Shown here: piece by piece, positions 1-57,019 of the stretch
Position numbering within the stretch: position 1 is the stretch's first letter
How the letters are laid out: every line of letters begins with the position of its first letter
Source of the DNA: Candidatus Venteria ishoeyi
Lineage (GTDB): Bacteria > Pseudomonadota > Gammaproteobacteria > Beggiatoales > Beggiatoaceae
Direction: 5' to 3'
Assembly (NCBI RefSeq): GCF_030378065.1
Contig: NZ_JAUCGJ010000016.1
Location: forward strand, 1 to 64,000
Length of the DNA: 64,000 bases
The notes under the pieces: model-generated
Seen by the model: the letters and a program-made list of their open reading frames with translations, nothing else
What the model was told of the DNA's origin: nothing
Databases searched by the model: none
Translations under genes and position numbers: made by a program

Positions 1-498
1 TCATCTTCAGCGCCAGGCTCTTCACCCAGGTCCAGACTCATGTCGTCATCGCCCAGGTCCAGCTCATCTTCAGCGCCAGGCTCTTCACCCAGGTCCAGGC
101 TCATGTCGTCATCGCCCAGGTCCAACTCATCTTCAGCGCCAGGCTCTTCACCCAGGTCCAGGCTCATGTCGTCATCGCCCAGGTCTAGCTCGTCTTCAGC
201 AACGCTGTCTTCACCCAGGTCCAGGCTCATGTCGTCATCGCCCAGGTCCAGCTCATCTTCAGCGCCAGGCTCTTCACCCAGGTCCAGGCTCATGTCGTCA
301 TCGCCCAGGTCCAGCTCATCTTCAGCGCCAGGCTCTTCACCCAGGTCCAGGCTCATGTCGTCATCGCCCAGGTCCAGATCCTCTTCAGCGCCAGGCTCTT
401 CACCCAGGTCCAGGCTCATGTCGTCATCGCCCAGGTCCAGCTCGTCTTCAGCGCCAGGCTCTTCACCCAGGTCCAGGCTCATGTCGTCATCGCCCAGA
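1..498. repeat. 63-bp in-frame tandem repeat inside fimV
   Basis: Seven full 63-bp units plus a partial one at the window edge, read on the minus strand as a 21-residue acidic unit of the type GDDDMSLDLGEEPGAEDEL plus two residues. Units are nearly identical. One (about 190-215) replaces the EEPGA core with a variant containing SVAED. The unit length is a multiple of three, so gain or loss of copies keeps the frame. Acidic repeats are known from Vibrio HubP. The true copy number cannot be read because the array continues beyond base 1. Confidence 0.95.
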
Positions 499-3077
499 TT
501 AAAATCTAAATCCATATCATCTGTAGCGGAGTCGGCATCTGTTTCAGTCTCTGAAGGCATTTCCAAACCACTATCACCAGATTCGGTAGCCATATCCAGA
601 TCGTCGCCCATATCGGTATCCAGATCAAAATTTAACTCATCTTCATCTGTCGCCGCTTCTGTTGTGCTACTAAAATCCAGTGAATCAGCTTCTTCTCCTG
701 GTATATCCAGGTCCATGTCCGCTTCGGGTGATGCGGCTTCAACATCTTCACTTGTCAATGCTGCTGTGGCAGCACCTGCCAGACCCACAGCCCCTGCAAC
801 AGCAGCAACTTCACCTAAGCCGCCATCTTCTGATTGTTTTAATAAAGGACGACCGGTTTCAAGCCCATCCCAAAGTTTTTGAGCAGTTTCCCACTCATCC
901 CCCTGGCCTCCAGTTGCTTGGTGTAATGCCATTGCGTGACTTTCAAAAGCATCTACTTGTTTTTGTGCCGCATCCAATTCCAGACGTTTAAGCAGGAAAG
1001 GGGGGTGATCTGGATTTTCAGCCAATGCAGCATCCAAGACTTCTTCTGCTTGCTCAAAACGCTCATAAACAATATAAACTTCAACCTCTTCCAGCACATC
1101 TGCGGTATTTGGTGCTACTTTACCCGTTTCCGTCTCGACGCCCTGTCCAGTTAAAGCATCTTCATCCCAGGTATCTGACTCAGTAGAGGTTTCAGCCTTA
1201 GAAGACTCAAGTTCTGCTTCGGGCATTTCTCCCTGATCTAATGCCTCCATTTCACGCTGCACTTCAGCTTCCATGCGACGTTTTTTAACCATCGGTATGC
1301 CAATTAACAATGCCAGTAAACCGCCAATACCACCAGCGACACTCATCCAGCCACCTGGTATCATTTCATTAATCGTTGCCAGCCAGCCATCAATAATTGG
1401 CATGATGCCGCCATCTTGCTCCATAACAACCGTTTTAGGTGGTGTTGCCGGTGTGGTTTCTACGGTTTCAGCTTGCTCAACTGCTGCCACTTCAGTTGCT
1501 TCACCTGGAGCAGTATCAACATCGATAGCAGTTTCAGTAGCCGCCGTTTCGTCCTCAGCCTCTTGCGCATCCACATCTTCTGCTGTGCTTACAGAAGCAT
1601 CTGCTTCTTCAGCAGTCGCCACTGTTTCATCTTCATCCGTTTCATCAGTACGACTGCCACCTGTCAAGTTTTTCAGAGAAATTCTTTTTACTGGTTTGCT
1701 GACAACTTCTGCTGGTGCTGCCTCTGGTGTCACTTCTGTTGTTGCAGCACTCTCTTCTGTTGTTTCAGTGGTTGCTTTCTCTGCTGTATCAGTCGTGGTT
1801 TCTACTTTTTCTGATGAGATTAGCGGGGCTGCCGCCGTTTCTACCGTTTCTACAGGTACTTCTGGAGCAGCTTTTCCTTGTCCTTCGGCCTGTTTAGCCA
1901 GTTTTGCTAAAACTTCACTATTAACCTGTAACAGTCTTTCCATTTTTGCTTGCGTGTCATCCATCATGCCACGCATTTCTGACAACTCTTTTCGGAATTG
2001 TTTATTTTCTTCTGCTAAAGCTTTATTTTCTTCTGCTAATGCCGTGATTTGCGCGCGTAAGGCACCATTAACCTTGTCGCCACTGCCACTTGCGGCTTGG
2101 CTGTCACCACCTGCGCTGAGAATGGATAAGCGGCCTTTTTCCGGCATCAGGGGAGTAACAGGCGCTATTGCAGGGGCGCTGGCAATGCGTTTAGTGCGTG
2201 CCGCTTTACTCGGTTTTGCCGCTAATTTATCTTGATAACGTCCCCAACTGCGTTTTTTCTGATGCATCATTTGCAATGCAGATTTATTACTGGCAGCAGC
2301 CAAATCTTCCTGTTCCGGCATATTTAATGTCGCGCCTTTGCGCAGCAAATTGATATTACCGCGAATAAATGCGTGAGGATTAGCCTCATACAGCGCAACC
2401 ATCATTTGCTCATGACTGATATCTGTGCCACGACGCATACGATTTGCAATCACCCACAAGGTGTCGCCTTTACGAATTTTTTTACTTTGTATGGGACTCC
2501 CCGCTGTTTTTGTTGAGGTGCGAGGTTTATCCGTTGCAGCCGGTACAAGAGAGCCATCGGCAGTAAATATCATGCGTTTGGGCTGATCAGGACGTGTGCT
2601 GAGGGTGCGGGAAGTGGTGCTGGCAGGACGCTTACTACGGGTTGCTGTTTGTACAGCAGCAGGTGTTTCATCGCCATATATCGGCGGATCCAGTAACACC
2701 GTATATTCCCGCAAAATACGCCCATTAGGCCAATTAACTTCAATCAGGAAATTTAAAAACGGCTGAGTGACCGGTTGCAGGGTGGATATGCGAATTGCAC
2801 CACGTCTGCCAGAGGTGATATGTACCTTGCTGAATTTCAGCGTCGAAAGAATCGAAGGTCGTTGCAGACCTGCACGCCGGAAAGCATCCTGGCTGGCCAA
2901 CGTCGCTTTGACGTTGTCATCATCTCCCCGGGGAATTGAGAGCAATTGAACGGTTGCATTCAATGGCTGGTTTAACTTGGATTTGACCTGAATATTCCCC
3001 AGTCCCAGTGCAAAAGCACCGCTGCTTAGAGCCATGCTGATCAAGAGGCTCAATACTACAGCAAGTTTACGCGTCAT
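1..3077 (-). CDS. fimV: FimV/HubP-family polar peptidoglycan-binding protein, 3' end missing
   Basis: Large polar scaffold of the FimV/HubP family, which organises type IV pili, twitching and pole identity. The protein starts at the ATG at 3077 with a signal peptide (MTRKLAVVLSLLISMALSSG) and a typical FimV N-domain containing EVNWPNGRILREYTVLLDPP near residue 125. A LysM domain follows (about 195-245, RKGDTLWVIANRM), then a coiled coil (about 335-390), long acidic Ala/Thr/Glu-rich linkers, one membrane segment (about 572-595, followed by KKRR) and a TPR-like stretch (about 655-715). From about residue 860 the protein enters a 21-residue acidic repeat that runs off the window, so the C-terminal FimV cap is not seen. 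The gene lies next to asd and leuB, as in Pseudomonas. The plus-strand frames here are antisense shadows. Confidence 0.93.
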   Translation of the reverse strand, partial: MTRKLAVVLSLLISMALSSGAFALGLGNIQVKSKLNQPLNATVQLLSIPRGDDDNVKATLASQDAFRRAGLQRPSILSTLKFSKVHITSGRRGAIRISTLQPVTQPFLNFLIEVNWPNGRILREYTVLLDPPIYGDETPAAVQTATRSKRPASTTSRTLSTRPDQPKRMIFTADGSLVPAATDKPRTSTKTAGSPIQSKKIRKGDTLWVIANRMRRGTDISHEQMMVALYEANPHAFIRGNINLLRKGATLNMPEQEDLAAASNKSALQMMHQKKRSWGRYQDKLAAKPSKAARTKRIASAPAIAPVTPLMPEKGRLSILSAGGDSQAASGSGDKVNGALRAQITALAEENKALAEENKQFRKELSEMRGMMDDTQAKMERLLQVNSEVLAKLAKQAEGQGKAAPEVPVETVETAAAPLISSEKVETTTDTAEKATTETTEESAATTEVTPEAAPAEVVSKPVKRISLKNLTGGSRTDETDEDETVATAEEADASVSTAEDVDAQEAEDETAATETAIDVDTAPGEATEVAAVEQAETVETTPATPPKTVVMEQDGGIMPIIDGWLATINEMIPGGWMSVAGGIGGLLALLIGIPMVKKRRMEAEVQREMEALDQGEMPEAELESSKAETSTESDTWDEDALTGQGVETETGKVAPNTADVLEEVEVYIVYERFEQAEEVLDAALAENPDHPPFLLKRLELDAAQKQVDAFESHAMALHQATGGQGDEWETAQKLWDGLETGRPLLKQSEDGGLGEVAAVAGAVGLAGAATAALTSEDVEAASPEADMDLDIPGEEADSLDFSSTTEAATDEDELNFDLDTDMGDDLDMATESGDSGLEMPSETETDADSATDDMDLDFNLGDDDMSLDLGEEPGAEDELDLGDDDMSLDLGEEPGAEEDLDLGDDDMSLDLGEEPGAEDELDLGDDDMSLDLGEEPGAEDELDLGDDDMSLDLGEDSVAEDELDLGDDDMSLDLGEEPGAEDELDLGDDDMSLDLGEEPGAEDELDLGDDDMSLDLGEEPGAED

Positions 3078-5254: not shown

Positions 5255-5260
5255 ATACTT

Positions 5261-5420
5261 AGGAGTGAGAATTTTATAACTTCAGCAACTTGGCTGGTCT
5301 TTTTCTCCATTTTCTACGTTGTGAAAACAGTTACATAGCTTGCTATGCGCCTGTTTTCACGCCTTGAAAATGAATGAAAATCCTGTGCCCAGTTTCTGTA
5401 TTTATTTCATCCTCACTCCT
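5261..5420. mobile_element. 160-bp MITE-like element, copy A
   Basis: First of four copies (others at 36077, 42228, 52526). The ends are AGGAGTGAG and CTCACTCCT. The centre is a nested palindrome in which GAAAACAG and CTGTTTTC flank CATAGC/GCTATG. It has no coding capacity, lies between leuB and the HEPN cassette, and has the same orientation as copy B. Confidence 0.85.
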
Positions 5421-5448
5421 TAATCAGTGAGAATATGCCTGCAACTAT

Positions 5449-36055: not shown

Positions 36056-36076
36056 CCAGTTACAGTCATTGGTATT

Positions 36077-36235
36077 AGGAACGAGGATTTTATAATTCCC
36101 GAAACCAGGCTGGCCTTTTTCTCCATTTTCTGCGTTATAAAAACACTTACATAGCTTGCTATGCGCCTGTTTTCATGCCTTGAAAATGAACAAAAATCCT
36201 GCGCCCGGTTTTGGTTCTTATTTCATCCTCGTTCC
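36077..36235. mobile_element. 160-bp MITE-like element, copy B
   Basis: Ends AGGAACGAG and CTCGTTCCT; internal core CATAGC-TT-GCTATG between AAAAACAC and CTGTTTTC. Same orientation as copy A, more diverged than copies C and D. It fills most of the gap between the CheY-like and beta-lactamase-fold genes. Confidence 0.85.
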
Positions 36236-36295
36236 TTAGAAAAATATTTTCCAACCGATTGTACAGGATTTACCCGCATTTCATCCAGTGATTCT

Positions 36296-42066: not shown

Positions 42067-42227
42067 ACATCTATAGCGCCTAACGTAGGCCAAGCGTACC
42101 AGTTGCCACCAGTTTTTGTTCAATGTTCAGTACTGGAAAGTACACGAGTATTGGCAATGCTGGCGGCCTATTGCAATAGACTTGTTGTCAGGAACTTGGT
42201 TCGGTGTGTAGATAATGCTGTTCCCTT
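42067..42227. other. Gap between hldD and MITE copy C
   Basis: 160 bases after hldD without any gene or clear hairpin. The remaining gap up to the Nudix gene is MITE copy C. Confidence 0.4.
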
Positions 42228-42387
42228 AGGAGTGAGGATAAAATAAATACAGAAACTGGGCGCAGGATTTTTATTCATTTTCAAGGCGTGAAAACAGGCG
42301 CATAGCAAGCTATGTAACTGTTTTCGGAACACAGAAAATGGAGAAAAAGACCAGCCAGGTTGCTGAAGTTATAAAATTCTCGCTCCT
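42228..42387. mobile_element. 160-bp MITE-like element, copy C
   Basis: Ends AGGAGTGAG and CTCGCTCCT; core CATAGCAAGCTATG between GAAAACAGG and CTGTTTTC. Inverted relative to copies A and B. Its last base is also the last base of the minus-strand Nudix stop codon, so insertion fixed or shortened that gene's 3' end. Confidence 0.87.
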
Positions 42388-43235
42388 TAAGAAACTAACC
42401 CCTGCACAATTTCACTATAATGTGTTTCATCTGGTGTTAAATAACCATAACGCACCATAAAATCAATAATCACTAAATTGCTATTGGTTTTAAATTCATC
42501 AGTCTCTTTAACCTTTGCAATCACTTCATCAATTGGCAGACAATAAAAATCTTCAACTTCGCCATCGGTATTTTGTGGCTTAAAGTCTTCAGGTAGAAAG
42601 ATATCATATAAAAACAGGGTATTGGACAAACAAGTCTGTTCCTGATCCATAGTATAAGTCAGTAACCCCACGGCTTTTGCCTGTTTTACCAGTTTTTCCG
42701 GGATATTCGCTTCTTCTGCCGACTCTTTCAGCAACACTTCCTGGGCAGTGTAACCCGCAGTTAAACCACCAGCAACCATTTGATCCAGGCGTAAGGGGAA
42801 AATTGGGCAAGCAGCACTGCGTCTGGCGATCCACATATGCAATTGCCCATCGCGCCAGGTTAGACCATTAAGATGTATGCCGTATTTACGTACACCAAAT
42901 AAACTGGTTGCACCACGATCCATTTCCATTAATGCTGGCAAAGTAAAGTCGGTACACACGCGATAGTATTCATTGCGGCCTCGAAAATAATTTTTTTGCT
43001 GCCAGTGGCTTAATATCTCTGCCAGTGCGTGAGTGCGTTGCACTGGTGTATGCAAGTGATCCTGGAGAACGATGGCCTCAGATGTGACAGTAAAAATATC
43101 AGGATGTTCCTGAAACAGTTCAATACGGCTGTGGTGAATCGCGCCTACGGCCTGGCTTTGAATATAAAATGGAATAAAATGCTGCGGATTGTGCTGGTTG
43201 CATTGTGTTACCCAGCGTAATAATTTTTTTGACAT
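42387..43235 (-). CDS. Nudix hydrolase with DUF4743 N-domain
   Basis: A 282-residue protein. An N-terminal domain (about 1-115) fits DUF4743; the Nudix box is AGGLTAGYTAQEVLLKESAE then EANIP (about residue 155), with the KE-x2-EEA variant seen in plant and bacterial enzymes that hydrolyse thiamine diphosphate or related compounds. The usual early Glu of GxxxxxE is Tyr here, as commonly seen in this subgroup. Function as a damaged-thiamine or nucleotide diphosphatase is inferred from the family. The gene ends in a MITE. Confidence 0.8.
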   Translation of the reverse strand: MSKKLLRWVTQCNQHNPQHFIPFYIQSQAVGAIHHSRIELFQEHPDIFTVTSEAIVLQDHLHTPVQRTHALAEILSHWQQKNYFRGRNEYYRVCTDFTLPALMEMDRGATSLFGVRKYGIHLNGLTWRDGQLHMWIARRSAACPIFPLRLDQMVAGGLTAGYTAQEVLLKESAEEANIPEKLVKQAKAVGLLTYTMDQEQTCLSNTLFLYDIFLPEDFKPQNTDGEVEDFYCLPIDEVIAKVKETDEFKTNSNLVIIDFMVRYGYLTPDETHYSEIVQGLVS

Positions 43236-50755: not shown

Positions 50756-52504
50756 TTAAGGCAAACTGGCCTCTTCCGCTTCCTTATCTTTACCCATGCT
50801 GAATTCCTTGGCAACATGGAAGCCATGACAATCCACGCAGGTTGATTGCAAGCGGCTGTCATCATGCACGCCGCCGTGACAATTACGACAGGTCTCAATA
50901 TCCGGCAACAGAATTTCACTGCTGTTATTGGACTCCTGCGCCAGATGACAACTGGTGCAATTCATGGTCTGGTGTTTAATATGTGAATAACGGGCGCGGG
51001 GTAGCCAGTCCGAGTTAATACGGATGGGGATAATACGCCACTTTGGCGGACTTTCCTGCACCTTTTCAACTTGATGGCATTCAACGCAAACACTGAACTC
51101 AAACACCTCTTCGGCAACTTCTTCCGCTTTCTCCCGCGCCCAGTTCAGCGCGATCATGCGCTCTTCGCCTTCCAGTTCCTCATCGGGAAAACGCTCAATT
51201 TGCACGATTTCCGGCACATCAAAGTCGTTACGATAATTACCGCGCAGTGCCTGAGTGCTGTAATAATCTAAAATGGTGTAAAGCACCTCTCCCACTTCAC
51301 CATGCGGCACAACGCGATCCAGTTCCATCGGCTCAAAGCTGAGTTTATGGCATTCCTGACAGTGCTGTTCAAAATTGATCGGCTTAAAGCCTGCCCCGCC
51401 TGGTTCTAAAGTATGGCAATCATCACACCATAAACGATAAATGCCATCAATGGTTTCCAGGCCTTTACGCGAAAGATGCACATCATGTGGATGTTCCAGA
51501 TTTGATTGCTCCATATAACGGACTTCATCATCCATTGCAACCCGTTTGCTGATATCCTGACCATCAATATGACTGGTCAAGGTTGGTTTAAATGCTGGAT
51601 GCTGCTCACCAAAATCTCTCGCATCTTCCAGCGTAGTATTCACACCCTGTTCACTTAAATCTTTATGGCAATCACTACACAACTGATCATCACGGTTGAT
51701 CAGCGCGTGTTTGCCATTATGCTCAATATGGCAGATGGCGCAACGGTCATTAAAGCGATCCAGTTCAAAAAATTCCGGGTCAACATGAGGATGGGTTTTA
51801 TCGTGACAGGCCACGCAGGCTTTATCCTGCACCGGCTCAAAAGGCGTTTGATGGCAGGTGGTGCAATCTTCACGGAAAAAATGATGGGCTGCCGCAACCT
51901 CGCCGGAGTTCCAGAAATTATCTGTTAACAGTTTCGGCATGGCTGGCAGCTCTACATATTCCTCGTCTGTAGACAGGTATTCTTCAATATCTGAAACCCA
52001 GGGCTGATACCAGTCAGCTAAATAAATATAAGTCAGTGGCAGGGCAAAAAACAGTAATAATATGCTGAAAAAAGACCACAAAGACAAGCGCCGCATATTC
52101 AGCTTGGTATCACTGAGCGATAACTGCGCGCGAGTCTGGATATGCTCATCTATGTCCCGCAACAAACGCCGGGTTTCCACTTCCAGCACCAGATCATAAT
52201 TTTCACGGGTACTGACGTGGATCAGCGAATCACCAATCCGGATGGTGTCACCGGGTTTAATCAGCGTGTTTTGTACCAGCTGATCATTAACCCGCACCCC
52301 GGATACTGAACGGGTACGCAGCAAAAAACGTCCCGCCGCTGCGGTGGTAATTTCCGCATGTTGCAGCGCGACGCGTAAATCCGGCAAAAATACAATTTGC
52401 TCACCGCCGCGACCAATAGTGATCGGCAGACCATTATGAATGCGATCACGATAGACCGCGCCGGATTTAGCTTGGCGAATAATCGTACTAATAAGACAAA
52501 GCAT
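50756..52504 (-). CDS. FHA-domain membrane-anchored decaheme cytochrome c
   Basis: A 582-residue fusion. Residues about 27-98 form a forkhead-associated phosphopeptide-binding domain (ITIGRGGEQIVFL, LQHAEI, GVRVNDQ). A membrane helix at about 141-162 (SLWSFFSILLLFFALPLTYI) places FHA inside and the rest outside. Ten CxxCH heme motifs follow: CTTCH, CVACH, CAICH, CSDCH, CDDCH, CQECH, CVECH, CTSCH, CRNCH and CVDCH. Many extra histidines suit bis-His ligation as in NapC/NrfH-like or tetrathionate/sulfur-related multihemes. Substrate unknown. A b-type membrane protein gene lies upstream in the same direction. Confidence 0.88.
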   Translation of the reverse strand: MLCLISTIIRQAKSGAVYRDRIHNGLPITIGRGGEQIVFLPDLRVALQHAEITTAAAGRFLLRTRSVSGVRVNDQLVQNTLIKPGDTIRIGDSLIHVSTRENYDLVLEVETRRLLRDIDEHIQTRAQLSLSDTKLNMRRLSLWSFFSILLLFFALPLTYIYLADWYQPWVSDIEEYLSTDEEYVELPAMPKLLTDNFWNSGEVAAAHHFFREDCTTCHQTPFEPVQDKACVACHDKTHPHVDPEFFELDRFNDRCAICHIEHNGKHALINRDDQLCSDCHKDLSEQGVNTTLEDARDFGEQHPAFKPTLTSHIDGQDISKRVAMDDEVRYMEQSNLEHPHDVHLSRKGLETIDGIYRLWCDDCHTLEPGGAGFKPINFEQHCQECHKLSFEPMELDRVVPHGEVGEVLYTILDYYSTQALRGNYRNDFDVPEIVQIERFPDEELEGEERMIALNWAREKAEEVAEEVFEFSVCVECHQVEKVQESPPKWRIIPIRINSDWLPRARYSHIKHQTMNCTSCHLAQESNNSSEILLPDIETCRNCHGGVHDDSRLQSTCVDCHGFHVAKEFSMGKDKEAEEASLP

Positions 52505-52525
52505 GATAATAGACTTCAGAAGTTA
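52505..52525. other. Short space before MITE copy D
   Basis: Only 21 bases separate the FHA-cytochrome ATG from MITE copy D; no ribosome-binding site is clear in it. Confidence 0.3.
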
Positions 52526-52685
52526 AGGAGTGAGGATGAAATAAGTGCAGGAACTGGGCGCAGGATTTTTATTCATTTTCAAGGCGTGAAAACAGGCGCA
52601 TAGCAAGCTATGTAACTGTTTTCACAACGCAGAAAATGGAGAAAAAGACCAGCCAGGTTGCTGAAGTTATAAAATTCTCGCTCCT
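52526..52685. mobile_element. 160-bp MITE-like element, copy D
   Basis: Ends AGGAGTGAG and CTCGCTCCT. Very close to copy C over its whole length, and in the same orientation (CATAGCAAGCTATG core). It lies inside what would otherwise be a continuous cytochrome operon. Confidence 0.87.
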
Positions 52686-52710
52686 AAGTAACTTTCCAGG
52701 CATTAAATGG

Positions 52711-52775
52711 GTGTTACGCAAAAGCTTCTTTTTCGCAGGTTTTGCAACTTTGGAAACACGAAAAAACTGCTTTTG
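52711..52775. repeat. Hairpin-repeat relative before the b-type gene end
   Basis: GTTACGCAAAAGCTTCTTTT, then CGCAGGTTTTGCAAC, then CGAAAAAACTGC. Same type as 6553 and 7341. The remaining gap to 52966 contains the hairpin GGACTGGCAGTCC-TTAAA-GGACTGCCAGTCC (52819-52849), which could terminate the b-type gene, and no gene. Confidence 0.5.
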
Positions 52776-52966
52776 CTGTATACCAGTACAGTAACTGGTA
52801 AAAACAAATAATAACTTCAGGACTGGCAGTCCTTAAAGGACTGCCAGTCCTACGCTCAAAGTTATTATGTGAACTTAGTGTTCGCTGTACTAGTTTTCAT
52901 CTGCATCTTGCTAACATTAATTTTAATTATTATAGCTGCTGCGTAACGTAAGCGAAGCAGCAACTA

Positions 52967-53872
52967 TTACCAATATAAAAACACCGTAACAATATGAATA
53001 ATCAACGCTGCCAGCATAGCAAAAGATAAGGGTACATGCACATAACGCCAGATATCCATCCAGGCCTGATAACGCACACTGCGGCGCAGACGCCCCACCA
53101 ATGCATTTTTGCGCTCCAGCAACTCCAGTAAACGCCGCATTTGTCCAGCTTGTTCTTTGTTTTCAGTATGCAATAAATGCTCGGCAATCACAAACATGGC
53201 GTAATCATGGCTTTCATCGCCACTACCGCTACATGACTTTTTCAAGGCCTGGCGCTGTTGTTTGGAAATTTTACGTTGCAAACGGGGGTTAGCAGCGGTT
53301 AACTGCTGCCAGACATTGCCACCTAAAACGGTACGCTCAATGGAATGTAACAAAGCCGTGTGAATCTGCTCATTCAAGCCTTCACCCAATTCCAGCACTT
53401 CCTGTTCCAGGTCAATGATTTCATGCAATATCAAATCCTGTGTCATGCCCCCCTGATTATCCGCCATTTTTTGCGGTAGACGCAAATATGCACTGACCCC
53501 ATATAAACCACTGAATACCACCAGCATCATTAACACATAAGCCAGGGTATGGACATTCACGCCAAACTGGAAGCCGGTGTGCAAAGTGACTATCATCACC
53601 GTCGCCAGTCCCAGATAGATATGCGCAGAGACCCAGCTTTGTACACTGCCAATGTAAGAGCAATAGCAACGTTTACGCACCCCCAGCCACATCAGCCATA
53701 AAATTAATAAGCTGCCAAGAATACCCGTTGCGTAACCCAGTTGCGTACCACCATTATGCGGTACACCCAGCCCGGTGTCTTCCACCAGATACAACAGCAA
53801 CACCAAAGCCGACAACAGCAGCGCAATTTTAAGATGCAGCATCTGACGATAAAGTAAAAAAGATTGATGCAT
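52967..53872 (-). CDS. b-type cytochrome-like membrane protein
   Basis: A 301-residue protein with four hydrophobic segments in the first 130 residues and a fifth at the C-terminus (LSFAMLAALIIHIVTVFLYW). Two membrane helices carry histidines 13 apart: AHIYLGLATVMIVTLHTG and VHVPLSFAMLAALIIHI, as in di-heme b cytochromes. A soluble helical domain of about 140 residues lies between. It overlaps the preceding gene by one base. With the decaheme FHA protein it could form a quinone-to-periplasm electron module; this is inferred from proximity. Confidence 0.7.
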   Translation of the reverse strand: MHQSFLLYRQMLHLKIALLLSALVLLLYLVEDTGLGVPHNGGTQLGYATGILGSLLILWLMWLGVRKRCYCSYIGSVQSWVSAHIYLGLATVMIVTLHTGFQFGVNVHTLAYVLMMLVVFSGLYGVSAYLRLPQKMADNQGGMTQDLILHEIIDLEQEVLELGEGLNEQIHTALLHSIERTVLGGNVWQQLTAANPRLQRKISKQQRQALKKSCSGSGDESHDYAMFVIAEHLLHTENKEQAGQMRRLLELLERKNALVGRLRRSVRYQAWMDIWRYVHVPLSFAMLAALIIHIVTVFLYW

Positions 53873-55044
53873 TAGATTTTTTCCAGTAAACGGCTATCCA
53901 CTTCCTTGAGTACGGTTGCTGTGGTGCTTAATACACCCGCCATATCTTTCCAGTTGGTGGCAGATGCGGTCAAAGACAAATCAATTAACACCAGCCCTTT
54001 CTCAAAACAATCCACCCATTTGGAAGATTGCTCCTTGTGCAGAAAATTCAAAATATCCGCTGTATTTTTCTGCCAGACCAGACCTTCCTGCACCTTACCT
54101 TGCATTTCTATAGTCTGTTTGATTTTTCGGTCAACCATCAGTTCCAGTTGGGTTAAGGCTTTGCGTAATCGGGTGCTTTTTACGCTTTTAATTTCCTGGG
54201 ATAACTTACCAATATCAGTAATACACTGTTGCAAGGATTTAGAGACTTTATGGGAATTAACATCAACCCCCTGTAATTTATTAAAATATAAATCGTTATT
54301 GCTTTTTGCAGTACTGATTGTTGTTGTTACGTTAGTACCAAAAAGAAAGTTTAAAAAACCTTTGGCGGCTTGTTTGAGCTGTGATGTCGTTTTACCCTTT
54401 TTATTTTTATTATAGGATTTTTTCAGTTTCTCCAGCTCTTTAGTCACTTTTTTTCGTGCCTTATCGGCATCAATTGCCAGCTTGTAAACCTGGGTGGCTA
54501 ATGCCGCAACAGCCTTGACAATACCATAAATGCCCACAATTAAACCAAACCCTGCCGAGCCAATAGAGCCAACCACGCCAACCGTAATGCTGCCAAGTTC
54601 CAAACCAATGGCAACGGCGGCTTTTATTTTATACTTTTTATATTCGGCTTTGGTTTTAACATAATTATCCCAAGCTTTATTCATGCCAGTAATGGCTGCT
54701 TTTTGCAGTTTTTTCATCGCCTCCTGAATATCTTTTTTAAATTGTTGAATGCCCTGGCCTTTTTCTTTGGAAGTAACATCATCTTTGGTCAAACACAGCA
54801 CGTCCAATTCTTTAGCTTTTTTAATCAGACTTTGCAGCATTTTATTGTAGGCGGTGGTAGCGGGATTTGTGAGTTTTTGCTGCAACAGGGGGTCTTTGTT
54901 AATTTTTGCAAAAATTGTATTATCAATTTCACAGGCAACGGTAATCCAGACGGGCCGGGTTTTTGTGGCCTTCAAAGACTTTAATTTGGATTCATTGACG
55001 ATTGCTCGCCATACGTCAAACTCTAATAAGACTAATTGTGCCAT
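53872..55044 (-). CDS. Helical protein with hydrophobic Gly-rich core, unknown
   Basis: A 390-residue protein starting MAQLVLLEFDVWRAIVNESK. The N-terminal part is basic and helical, a central hydrophobic glycine-rich stretch (about 150-195, VGVVGSIGSAGFGLIVGIYG) resembles pore-forming or membrane-inserting helical hairpins, and the rest is lysine-rich coiled coil. I do not recognise a family. The ATG at 55044 is preceded by an ACAGGA site; an upstream extension is unlikely. Its stop overlaps the next ATG (TAATG), so it is coupled to the b-type gene. Confidence 0.6.
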   Translation of the reverse strand: MAQLVLLEFDVWRAIVNESKLKSLKATKTRPVWITVACEIDNTIFAKINKDPLLQQKLTNPATTAYNKMLQSLIKKAKELDVLCLTKDDVTSKEKGQGIQQFKKDIQEAMKKLQKAAITGMNKAWDNYVKTKAEYKKYKIKAAVAIGLELGSITVGVVGSIGSAGFGLIVGIYGIVKAVAALATQVYKLAIDADKARKKVTKELEKLKKSYNKNKKGKTTSQLKQAAKGFLNFLFGTNVTTTISTAKSNNDLYFNKLQGVDVNSHKVSKSLQQCITDIGKLSQEIKSVKSTRLRKALTQLELMVDRKIKQTIEMQGKVQEGLVWQKNTADILNFLHKEQSSKWVDCFEKGLVLIDLSLTASATNWKDMAGVLSTTATVLKEVDSRLLEKI

Positions 55045-55114
55045 GTCCTGTTTCCCCTTTTGTATAATGCGGCAGAAATCACAACAAATCAGATACACTC
55101 AGTGTTCTCAACAT

Positions 55115-55259: not shown

Positions 55260-55998
55260 AAAAGGGGACGCTACCCTTTTATTAAGAATTATTGTAAACT
55301 TAACTCATGCCCAGAATCGCTCGTACAGTTTTTGCAGAACTTCCGCACCATATTATCCAGCGCGGTAATCGTCGTGGAAATGTATTTTTCACTGATGAAG
55401 ACCGTGATGTTTATCTGGAATGGTTACAGGAATATTGCCAGAAACATGAGGTTGAGATATTAGCATATTGTCTGATGACAAATCATGTTCACTTGGTTGC
55501 TGCTCCCAAGACGGAATCCGGGTTGCAGCGCGTCTTCAAACCCATACATATGCGTTATGCTCAATATATCAATCGCCAATATGGATGGTCTGGTCATTTA
55601 TGGCAAGGTCGCTTTTTCTCCAGCCCTCTTGATGAAGCTTATTTGTGGTTTTGTGTGCGTTATGTAGAACGCAATCCGGTCAGGGCGGGCATGGTTGAAC
55701 GGGCAGAAGATTATCTCTGGTCAAGTGCTGCTGCGCATTGCGGTTTAAGAGATGATGCTTTATTAACAACAGATTCCATTCACTGCAAAGTTTTTGAAGA
55801 TATTTCAGATTACTCAGCCTGGTTAGGCGAGGATGATAACGATACACAATTGAATATCATGCGACGCAATATTCAAAAAAACTTGCCTTGTGGTTCGAAT
55901 CCATTTATTGAGCAATTGGAACGGATTTCTGGACGCATATTAAGTTTTCGACCCATTGGTAGGCCTAAAAAAGCAATAAAAGGGTAGCGTCCCCTTTT
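55260..55998 (+). mobile_element. REP-bounded RAYT unit 1
   Basis: Bounded by inverted 21-bp REP sequences (55260-55280 and 55978-55998), each itself a hairpin: AAAAGGG, a 7-base loop GACGCTA, CCCTTTT. The unit holds one transposase gene whose stop codon lies inside the right REP. Confidence 0.85.
55307..55987 (+). CDS. REP-associated tyrosine transposase (IS200-like), copy 1
   Basis: A 226-residue HUH-family Y1 transposase of the RAYT type. The HUH pair is in MTNHVHLVAAPKTESG, a candidate catalytic Tyr is in HMRYAQYINRQYGW, and SGHLWQGRFFSSPLDEAY plus YVERNPVRAGMV are RAYT signatures. It starts PRIARTVFAELPHHIIQRGN. RAYTs move or amplify REP sequences. Two base differences were noticed against copy 2, one changing Ala to Val. 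Confidence 0.92.
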   Translation: MPRIARTVFAELPHHIIQRGNRRGNVFFTDEDRDVYLEWLQEYCQKHEVEILAYCLMTNHVHLVAAPKTESGLQRVFKPIHMRYAQYINRQYGWSGHLWQGRFFSSPLDEAYLWFCVRYVERNPVRAGMVERAEDYLWSSAAAHCGLRDDALLTTDSIHCKVFEDISDYSAWLGEDDNDTQLNIMRRNIQKNLPCGSNPFIEQLERISGRILSFRPIGRPKKAIKG

Positions 55999-56280: not shown

Positions 56281-57019
56281 AAAAGGGGACGCTACCCTTT
56301 TATTAAGAATTATTGTAAACTTAACTCATGCCCAGAATCGCTCGTACAGTTTTTGCAGAACTTCCGCACCATATTATCCAGCGCGGTAATCGTCGTGGAA
56401 ATGTATTTTTCACTGATGAAGACCGTGATGTTTATCTGGAATGGTTACAGGAATATTGCCAGAAACACGAGGTTGAGATATTAGCATATTGTCTGATGAC
56501 AAATCATGTTCACTTGGTTGCTGTTCCCAAGACGGAATCCGGGTTGCAGCGCGTCTTCAAACCCATACATATGCGTTATGCTCAATATATCAATCGCCAA
56601 TATGGATGGTCTGGTCATTTATGGCAAGGTCGCTTTTTCTCCAGCCCTCTTGATGAAGCTTATTTGTGGTTTTGTGTGCGTTATGTAGAACGCAATCCGG
56701 TCAGGGCGGGCATGGTTGAACGGGCAGAAGATTATCTCTGGTCAAGTGCTGCTGCGCATTGCGGTTTAAGAGATGATGCTTTATTAACAACAGATTCCAT
56801 TCACTGCAAAGTTTTTGAAGATATTTCAGATTACTCAGCCTGGTTAGGCGAGGATGATAACGATACACAATTGAATATCATGCGACGCAATATTCAAAAA
56901 AACTTGCCTTGTGGTTCGAATCCATTTATTGAGCAATTGGAACGGATTTCTGGACGCATATTAAGTTTTCGACCCATTGGTAGGCCTAAAAAAGCAATAA
57001 AAGGGTAGCGTCCCCTTTT
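56281..57019 (+). mobile_element. REP-bounded RAYT unit 2
   Basis: Same structure as unit 1: REP at 56281-56301 and inverted REP at 56999-57019 around a transposase gene. Near-identity to unit 1 shows a recent duplication. Confidence 0.85.
56328..57008 (+). CDS. REP-associated tyrosine transposase, copy 2
   Basis: A 226-residue protein identical to copy 1 except Val for Ala in LVAVPKTESG. All HUH, Tyr and C-terminal motifs are retained, so it may be active. The C-terminal coding sequence (RPIGRPKKAIKG) leads directly into the right REP, and this junction is repeated twice more downstream. Confidence 0.92.
   Translation: MPRIARTVFAELPHHIIQRGNRRGNVFFTDEDRDVYLEWLQEYCQKHEVEILAYCLMTNHVHLVAVPKTESGLQRVFKPIHMRYAQYINRQYGWSGHLWQGRFFSSPLDEAYLWFCVRYVERNPVRAGMVERAEDYLWSSAAAHCGLRDDALLTTDSIHCKVFEDISDYSAWLGEDDNDTQLNIMRRNIQKNLPCGSNPFIEQLERISGRILSFRPIGRPKKAIKG

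What the first reader, a model, noticed from the sequence alone, without database searches (positions are those of the whole stretch)
50756..53872. FHA domain fused to a membrane-anchored decaheme cytochrome, next to a b-type membrane protein
Sequence shows an N-terminal FHA domain, one membrane helix and ten CxxCH motifs in one frame. FHA domains bind phosphothreonine peptides in the cytoplasm, while decaheme domains work in the periplasm. The fusion suggests that electron flow or complex assembly is tied to Ser/Thr phosphorylation. A neighbouring protein with two helices bearing His-13-His pairs could pass quinol electrons to it.
Basis: partly seen in the sequence, partly recalled or inferred. 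Interest (0 to 1): 0.7.

Follow-up and report, generated by a model that had tools for sequence, protein, structure and literature searches.

The report
FHA-anchored ten-haem electron conduit module
A real and widely conserved bacterial protein joins a cytoplasmic FHA domain to a periplasmic wire of ten haems; it nearly always travels with a two-haem-type membrane protein and a cyclic-nucleotide-sensing, NAD(P)H-type iron-sulphur reductase, so it looks like a regulated wire that carries electrons across the inner membrane, but its FHA domain has lost most of what is needed to read protein phosphorylation.

Summary
Window 50756-52504(-) encodes FHA (aa 1-111), one membrane helix (145-163) and exactly ten CxxCH. 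Window 52967-53872(-) is a five-helix protein with two WX3HX13H pairs.

The fusion is no assembly error: 168 related loci were found; all 76 aligned full-length members have ten CxxCH and ten further invariant His in the heme region, implying ten bis-His hemes (a wire, not an enzyme). The b-type gene lies directly upstream (median gap 7 bp) in all 71 database loci where it was found; exceptions are contig ends and the window's own family, where it is mostly unlinked but present.

The usual operon adds an FAD/NAD(P) reductase with two cyclic-nucleotide domains and four [4Fe-4S] motifs, plus an outer module. The window's genome keeps the inner three genes, which occur in exactly the same 7 of 43 family genomes.

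Phosphorylation coupling is not supported: FHA keeps Gly, Arg and His, but the phosphate-contacting Ser is replaced in 71/76 and Asn in 76/76; one locus has a kinase alongside. Cyclase or phosphodiesterase genes recur instead.

Best explanation: inner-membrane electron conduit, NAD(P)H to b hemes to decaheme, FHA as a largely phosphate-independent dock. New variant of a known kind (PCC-type electron transfer).

The parts
50756..52504 (-). FHA-TM-decaheme cytochrome gene, 582 aa
   Evidence: Open frame, Pfam, family of 76 aligned members
52172..52504 (-). FHA domain, aa 1-111, predicted cytoplasmic
   Evidence: PF00498 aa 28-91, AlphaFold2 strands to aa 111 at pLDDT about 95, FHA fold matches
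52016..52072 (-). Single membrane helix, aa 145-163, Lys/Arg-rich on the FHA side
   Evidence: Hydropathy and charge counts over 76 members
50816..51886 (-). Decaheme region, aa 207-563, ten CxxCH and ten further invariant His
52967..53872 (-). Five-helix b-type membrane protein, 301 aa, two WX3HX13H motifs and SGxxG
   Evidence: conserved neighbour in relatives
52505..52966 (.). Spacer between the two genes, holding two interspersed repeats (about 52523-52690 and 52785-52894)

Best explanation
The protein is the periplasmic electron acceptor (or donor) of an inner-membrane electron-transfer complex of three proteins: (1) a cytoplasmic NAD(P)H/FAD reductase carrying two cyclic-nucleotide-binding domains and four [4Fe-4S] motifs (own genome G000:C64:79101-81518), (2) the five-helix b-type membrane protein of the window, (3) the FHA-TM-decaheme protein. 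Shown by sequence: the domains, ten CxxCH with ten invariant extra His, the conserved linkage or co-occurrence of the three genes. Inferred: electrons run NAD(P)H to FAD to 4 x [4Fe-4S] to two b hemes to ten c hemes in the periplasm; in most relatives they go on to a tetraheme cytochrome and an outer-membrane module; in the window's family they must go to other periplasmic partners. The FHA domain most likely works as a cytoplasmic docking module that holds the reductase or another complex member at the membrane, largely without phosphothreonine; control of the flow is more likely by cyclic nucleotides than by a Ser/Thr kinase.
For: Fusion and ten CxxCH conserved in 76/76 aligned members; ten extra invariant His match ten hemes. 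b-type gene directly upstream, same strand, in 71/71 database loci where it was found, median gap 7 bp; in a 369-genome class sample all 16 FHA-decaheme genomes have it and only one more genome does. In the window's family the three genes are mostly unlinked yet occur in exactly the same 7 of 43 genomes. Reductase: FAD/NAD(P), 2 x cNMP, exactly 16 conserved Cys in four 4Fe-4S motifs, no conserved redox disulphide. WX3HX13H twice plus SGxxG as in the PCC3/PCC4 inner-membrane proteins. FHA fold clear but phosphopeptide-contacting Ser/Asn lost. CHASE2-cyclase beside the operon in about ten loci and a CpdA/SpdA-like phosphodiesterase directly downstream in Sphingobium plasmids.
Against: No expression, binding or redox data. 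The FHA Arg is invariant in 76/76, so an anionic ligand, phosphate included, remains possible. One member (L096) lacks FHA while its genome keeps a full-length reductase, so docking by FHA cannot be essential everywhere. Heme-b binding and fold of the membrane protein are not shown by structure. Co-occurrence within one family can partly reflect shared ancestry. Direction of electron flow is not determined.
Confidence: 0.6

Rival explanations
1. Quinol route: the b-type protein takes electrons from the quinol pool and passes them to the decaheme; the FAD/Fe-S protein is a regulator or a second entry point.
For: The same motif set was proposed to be quinone-active in PCC3/PCC4 (PMC5566968); the two genes are the closest-linked pair.
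Against: A four-cluster Fe-S NAD(P)H-type reductase is the third obligate partner and would have no clear role; no quinone site identified; no NapC-type or b561-type family match above cut-off.
Confidence: 0.2
2. Phospho-gated wire: FHA reads a phosphothreonine on a partner and so ties complex assembly or electron flow to a Ser/Thr kinase.
For: FHA fold and invariant phosphate-contacting Arg; about ten kinases in the own genome; a kinase gene directly downstream in G004.
Against: Ser lost in 71/76 and Asn in 76/76; kinase adjacency in one locus only; FHA missing in L096.
Confidence: 0.17
3. Electron uptake: the same chain runs inward, bringing electrons from outside or the periplasm to NAD(P)+ or quinone in lithotrophs.
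For: Hosts include sulphur-oxidiser relatives and Nitrosomonas; a ten-heme 'Forkhead-associated protein' is listed in 27 of 87 Gallionellaceae iron-oxidiser genomes (PMC10734462).
Against: Also common in Lysobacterales, Nevskiaceae and Sphingobium, not known as lithotrophs; the window's family lacks the full-length outer decaheme.
Confidence: 0.25

Closest known systems
PCC3/PCC4 putative porin-cytochrome clusters of iron oxidisers (He et al. 2017, PMC5566968)
   Same: Inner-membrane protein with five helices, two WX3HX13H motifs and SGxxG; multiheme cytochromes and a barrel; in PCC4 subgroup II a PF13247 Fe-S gene directly upstream of the membrane protein
   Different: PCC4 multihemes are described with 4, 5 and 10 hemes, here 10, 10 and 4; no FHA, cyclic-nucleotide or HbpS part is named in the passages read; the window's genome lacks the outer decaheme. 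Direct sequence comparison with named PCC4 genes could not be run
Gallionellaceae cytochrome cluster 403, 'Forkhead-associated protein', 10 CXXCH (PMC10734462, Table 1)
   Same: Same label and heme count; very probably this family (not tested by sequence)
   Different: Only listed in a table there; no operon, partner or function described in the passages read
Geobacter Ext selenite/tellurite operon, ExtM (PMC5877670)
   Same: The outer decaheme of the relatives matches ExtM distantly in all 13 members scanned
   Different: Far below the family cut-off (about 70 of 800 bits); Ext has a bc-type b cytochrome and a Rieske protein
GarA/OdhI FHA regulators
   Same: Among the closest solved FHA domains by sequence and structure; from general knowledge their FHA domain can bind a metabolic enzyme without phosphorylation, a precedent for FHA as an enzyme dock
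   Different: GarA keeps the Ser and Asn lost here (alignment); soluble, no hemes
NADPH oxidase/ferric reductase and FdnH-FdnI type modules
   Same: Cytoplasmic flavin or four-cluster Fe-S donor feeding a two-heme membrane b cytochrome (general knowledge)
   Different: The acceptor here is an FHA-anchored decaheme; no family match of the b-type protein above cut-off

Membership tests
Phosphothreonine-reading FHA domain | FHA beta-sandwich fold | tested here: met
   PF00498 above cut-off; VIA Z about 11, rmsd about 2.5, 90-95 residues, to FHA structures
Phosphothreonine-reading FHA domain | Conserved Gly and phosphate-contacting Arg (GR) | tested here: met
   76/76
Phosphothreonine-reading FHA domain | Phosphate-contacting Ser three residues before the conserved His | tested here: not met
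   Ser in 5/76, Ala in 39/76, Ala in the window protein; residue role from PMC4037201
Phosphothreonine-reading FHA domain | Peptide-contacting Asn before the conserved Gly of loop 4 | tested here: not met
   Asn in 0 of 76; Ala 45, Ser 13
PCC4-type porin-cytochrome cluster | Inner-membrane protein with five helices, WX3HX13H twice and SGxxG | tested here: met
   against the description
PCC4-type porin-cytochrome cluster | Multiheme set of 4, 5 and 10 hemes | tested here: not met
   Relatives have 10, 10 and 4; beside the window genes there is one decaheme only
PCC4-type porin-cytochrome cluster | Outer-membrane barrel gene in the cluster | tested here: inconclusive
   A candidate barrel gene (about 600 aa, no Pfam match, strands not predicted here) in 64 of 80 database loci; none beside the window genes; not searched genome-wide in the window's family
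PCC4-type porin-cytochrome cluster | Sequence homology to named PCC4 proteins | not tested
MtrA/DmsE-type decaheme (TIGR03508) | Score above family cut-off | tested here: not met
   17.5 bits against 192.2
NapC/NirT (CymA-type) quinol dehydrogenase | Match to the NapC/NirT domain in Pfam | tested here: not met
   No such match in the Pfam scans
Cytochrome b561 / Ni-hydrogenase cytochrome b | Pfam score above cut-off for the b-type protein | tested here: not met
   PF01292 14.8 of 30.1 bits, PF14358 18 of 26.7

The most novel reading that the evidence does not exclude
A quinone-independent, cyclic-nucleotide-gated NAD(P)H dehydrogenase that exports electrons through the inner membrane onto a ten-heme wire, in which an FHA domain has been turned from a phosphothreonine reader into a permanent or anion-sensing dock for the reductase; the outer-membrane half is an optional add-on that the window's family has dropped.
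Probability: 0.33. Interest if true: 0.8.

Novelty: new variant of a known kind. Interest (0 to 1): 0.58.

Why it matters
If right, it describes a widespread but uncharacterised way for Gram-negative bacteria to move reducing power across the inner membrane, with a signalling-type domain and second-messenger sensors built into the wire. It joins loosely listed parts (a 'Forkhead-associated' decaheme, PCC-type inner-membrane proteins, cyclic-nucleotide-binding reductases) into one three-gene core that stays together in genomes even when the genes separate, and it points to cultivated hosts (for example Sphingobium herbicidovorans MH, Nitrosomonas supralitoralis, Fontimonas thermophila) in which it can be tested.

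Tried and rejected
Assembly error as the source of the fusion: rejected, the same fusion is in 75 database loci from many independent assemblies, isolates included. Kinase association: a scan of the loci with the G004 kinase found one clear adjacent case. FHA loss explained by a changed reductase: in L096's genome the reductase is full length. Structure of the b-type protein: model of medium confidence, no Foldseek match below E 0.001, VIA matches only to helical bundles at uninformative Z. Placing the heme region by fold: the FHA domain fills the match list and AlphaFold2 has no hemes, so the heme-region fold stays untested. Paper searches for FHA plus CXXCH or multiheme gave no description of the family beyond the Gallionellaceae table.

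Full report
1. Observation. The frame at window 50756-52504(-) is open from ATG to stop and encodes 582 aa. It holds an FHA domain (PF00498, aa 28-91, 37.2 bits, cut-off 20.7), one hydrophobic helix (aa 145-163) and ten CxxCH motifs, where composition alone predicts 0.04. It is the only PF00498 match in the 4.4-Mb genome. The next gene upstream, 52967-53872(-), 301 aa, has five hydrophobic helices and two WX3HX13H motifs. The 462-bp spacer between them carries two interspersed repeat families found at dozens of places in the genome.

2. The fusion is genuine. Searching relatives found intact homologues in several genera, and a scan of 84,980 species genomes found 168 related loci, of which the best 80 were fetched: by record title Thiotrichales, Lysobacterales, Woeseiaceae, Nevskiaceae, Nitrosomonas, some Alphaproteobacteria and others, isolates included. 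Of these, 75 full-length members were aligned with the window protein. All 76 have exactly ten CxxCH; beyond these, exactly ten His in the heme region are invariant in 76/76. That is what ten bis-histidine hemes need, and it leaves no open heme for catalysis, so the protein is most likely an electron carrier (inference). Lys/Arg are more common before the helix than after it in 68 of 76 members, so FHA is predicted in the cytoplasm and the hemes in the periplasm. One member, L096, has lost FHA but keeps the helix and ten CxxCH.

3. Genomic setting. In most loci the gene sits in a conserved operon: (a) a protein of about 800 aa with an FAD/NAD(P) domain, two cNMP-binding domains and 4Fe-4S domains, with exactly 16 conserved Cys in four cluster motifs and no conserved redox disulphide; (b) the b-type protein; (c) the FHA-decaheme; (d) an HbpS-like lipoprotein; (e) a protein of about 600 aa that looks like an outer-membrane beta-barrel (judged by sequence character and position only; no family match); (f) a 1250-aa protein with ten CxxCH and LVIVD repeats, distantly like ExtM; and often (g) a tetraheme c554-like cytochrome. 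The b-type gene is directly upstream on the same strand in all 71 database loci in which it was found (median gap 7 bp); it is missing only at contig ends and in the window's own family. Sphingobium plasmids carry the same genes in two convergent units, a core (a-b-c plus a phosphodiesterase) and an outer one (g-d-e-f).

4. The window's family. There the outer decaheme (f) is not found as a full-length gene, and the three core genes are mostly unlinked; in the window (b) and (c) are still neighbours, and in G004 (a) and (b) are. All three core genes occur in exactly the same 7 of 43 genomes: FHA-decaheme (which covered 37 of the 43; the six others have neither partner), full-length b-type protein, reductase. 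The own copy of the reductase is at G000:C64:79101-81518. If the 7 were drawn at random, the chance of an exact overlap of two such sets would be 3e-8; the genomes are related, so the true surprise is smaller. In a class-wide sample of 369 genomes, 16 have the full-length FHA-decaheme (one of them, G296, matched from the membrane helix onwards), 17 the b-type protein (the same 16 plus one in which the gene lies at a contig end), and 12 the outer decaheme, all within those 17. G132 shows a complete core with tetraheme cytochromes and no outer module beside it (L149). The core is therefore a unit that can stand without the outer-membrane half.

5. The FHA domain. The fold is not in doubt. Of the five residues that mark phosphopeptide-reading FHA domains (PMC4037201), Gly and Arg are invariant and His is kept in 70/76, but the phosphate-contacting Ser is present in 5/76 and the peptide-contacting Asn in none; the alignment with GarA shows the same two losses. 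A kinase gene adjoins in one locus (G004). By contrast a CHASE2 class III cyclase accompanies the operon in about ten loci, another locus has a cyclase with an FHA-like tail next door, and Sphingobium has a CpdA/SpdA-like cyclic-nucleotide phosphodiesterase directly downstream. The signal most plausibly linked to this system is a cyclic nucleotide sensed by the reductase. The invariant Arg leaves room for an anionic ligand, so I give the phospho-link 0.17.

6. Mechanism (inferred). The reductase oxidises NAD(P)H and passes electrons over FAD and four clusters to two b hemes, which hand them across the membrane to the decaheme; FHA keeps the reductase or another partner at the membrane. A quinol route and an inward direction remain open; the rivals' probabilities overlap, since direction, entry point and FHA role are separate questions.

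7. Known or new. The b-type protein has the exact motif set of the inner-membrane proteins of the PCC3/PCC4 clusters (PMC5566968), and a ten-heme 'Forkhead-associated protein' is listed in a table for 27 of 87 Gallionellaceae iron-oxidiser genomes (PMC10734462). Heme numbers differ from PCC4 as described, and sequence identity with PCC4 proteins could not be tested. No paper found describes the FHA-decaheme, its partner reductase or the split core; subscription journals were not searched. I file it as a new variant of a known kind, multiheme trans-envelope electron transfer.

Noticed in passing
window 52523-52690, 5256-5423, 36075-36238, 42226-42389: Interspersed repeat of about 160 nt, four copies in the window and dozens in the genome; a second family at about 52785-52894 has about a dozen copies.
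   Followed up: partly
window 55307-55987 and 56328-57008: Two almost identical IS200-like (Y1_Tnp) transposase genes in tandem, 99 percent alike over the compared stretch.
   Followed up: no
window 53872-55098(-): 408-aa protein of coiled-coil and hydrophobic character whose end overlaps the start of the b-type gene; no Pfam match above cut-off, not seen beside the b-type gene in the relatives examined.
   Followed up: partly
L152:402-1385 (+): Class III cyclase with an FHA-like C-terminal region (by eye), tail-to-tail with an FHA-decaheme gene: possibly a second FHA-bearing protein at the same locus.
   Followed up: partly
L096:9968-11446: Natural FHA-less member of the family with helix and ten CxxCH kept, in a Burkholderiaceae MAG.
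   Followed up: yes
L148:10252-11727 (G004): Ser/Thr protein kinase gene directly downstream of the FHA-decaheme gene, the only such case seen.
   Followed up: yes
window 1-623: Direct repeat array with a 63-nt period, seven copies in register.
   Followed up: no
L067:1616-6759 and similar loci: CHASE2-cyclase, TPR and FecR-domain genes form a recurring block upstream of the reductase gene in Woeseiaceae-like genomes.
   Followed up: partly
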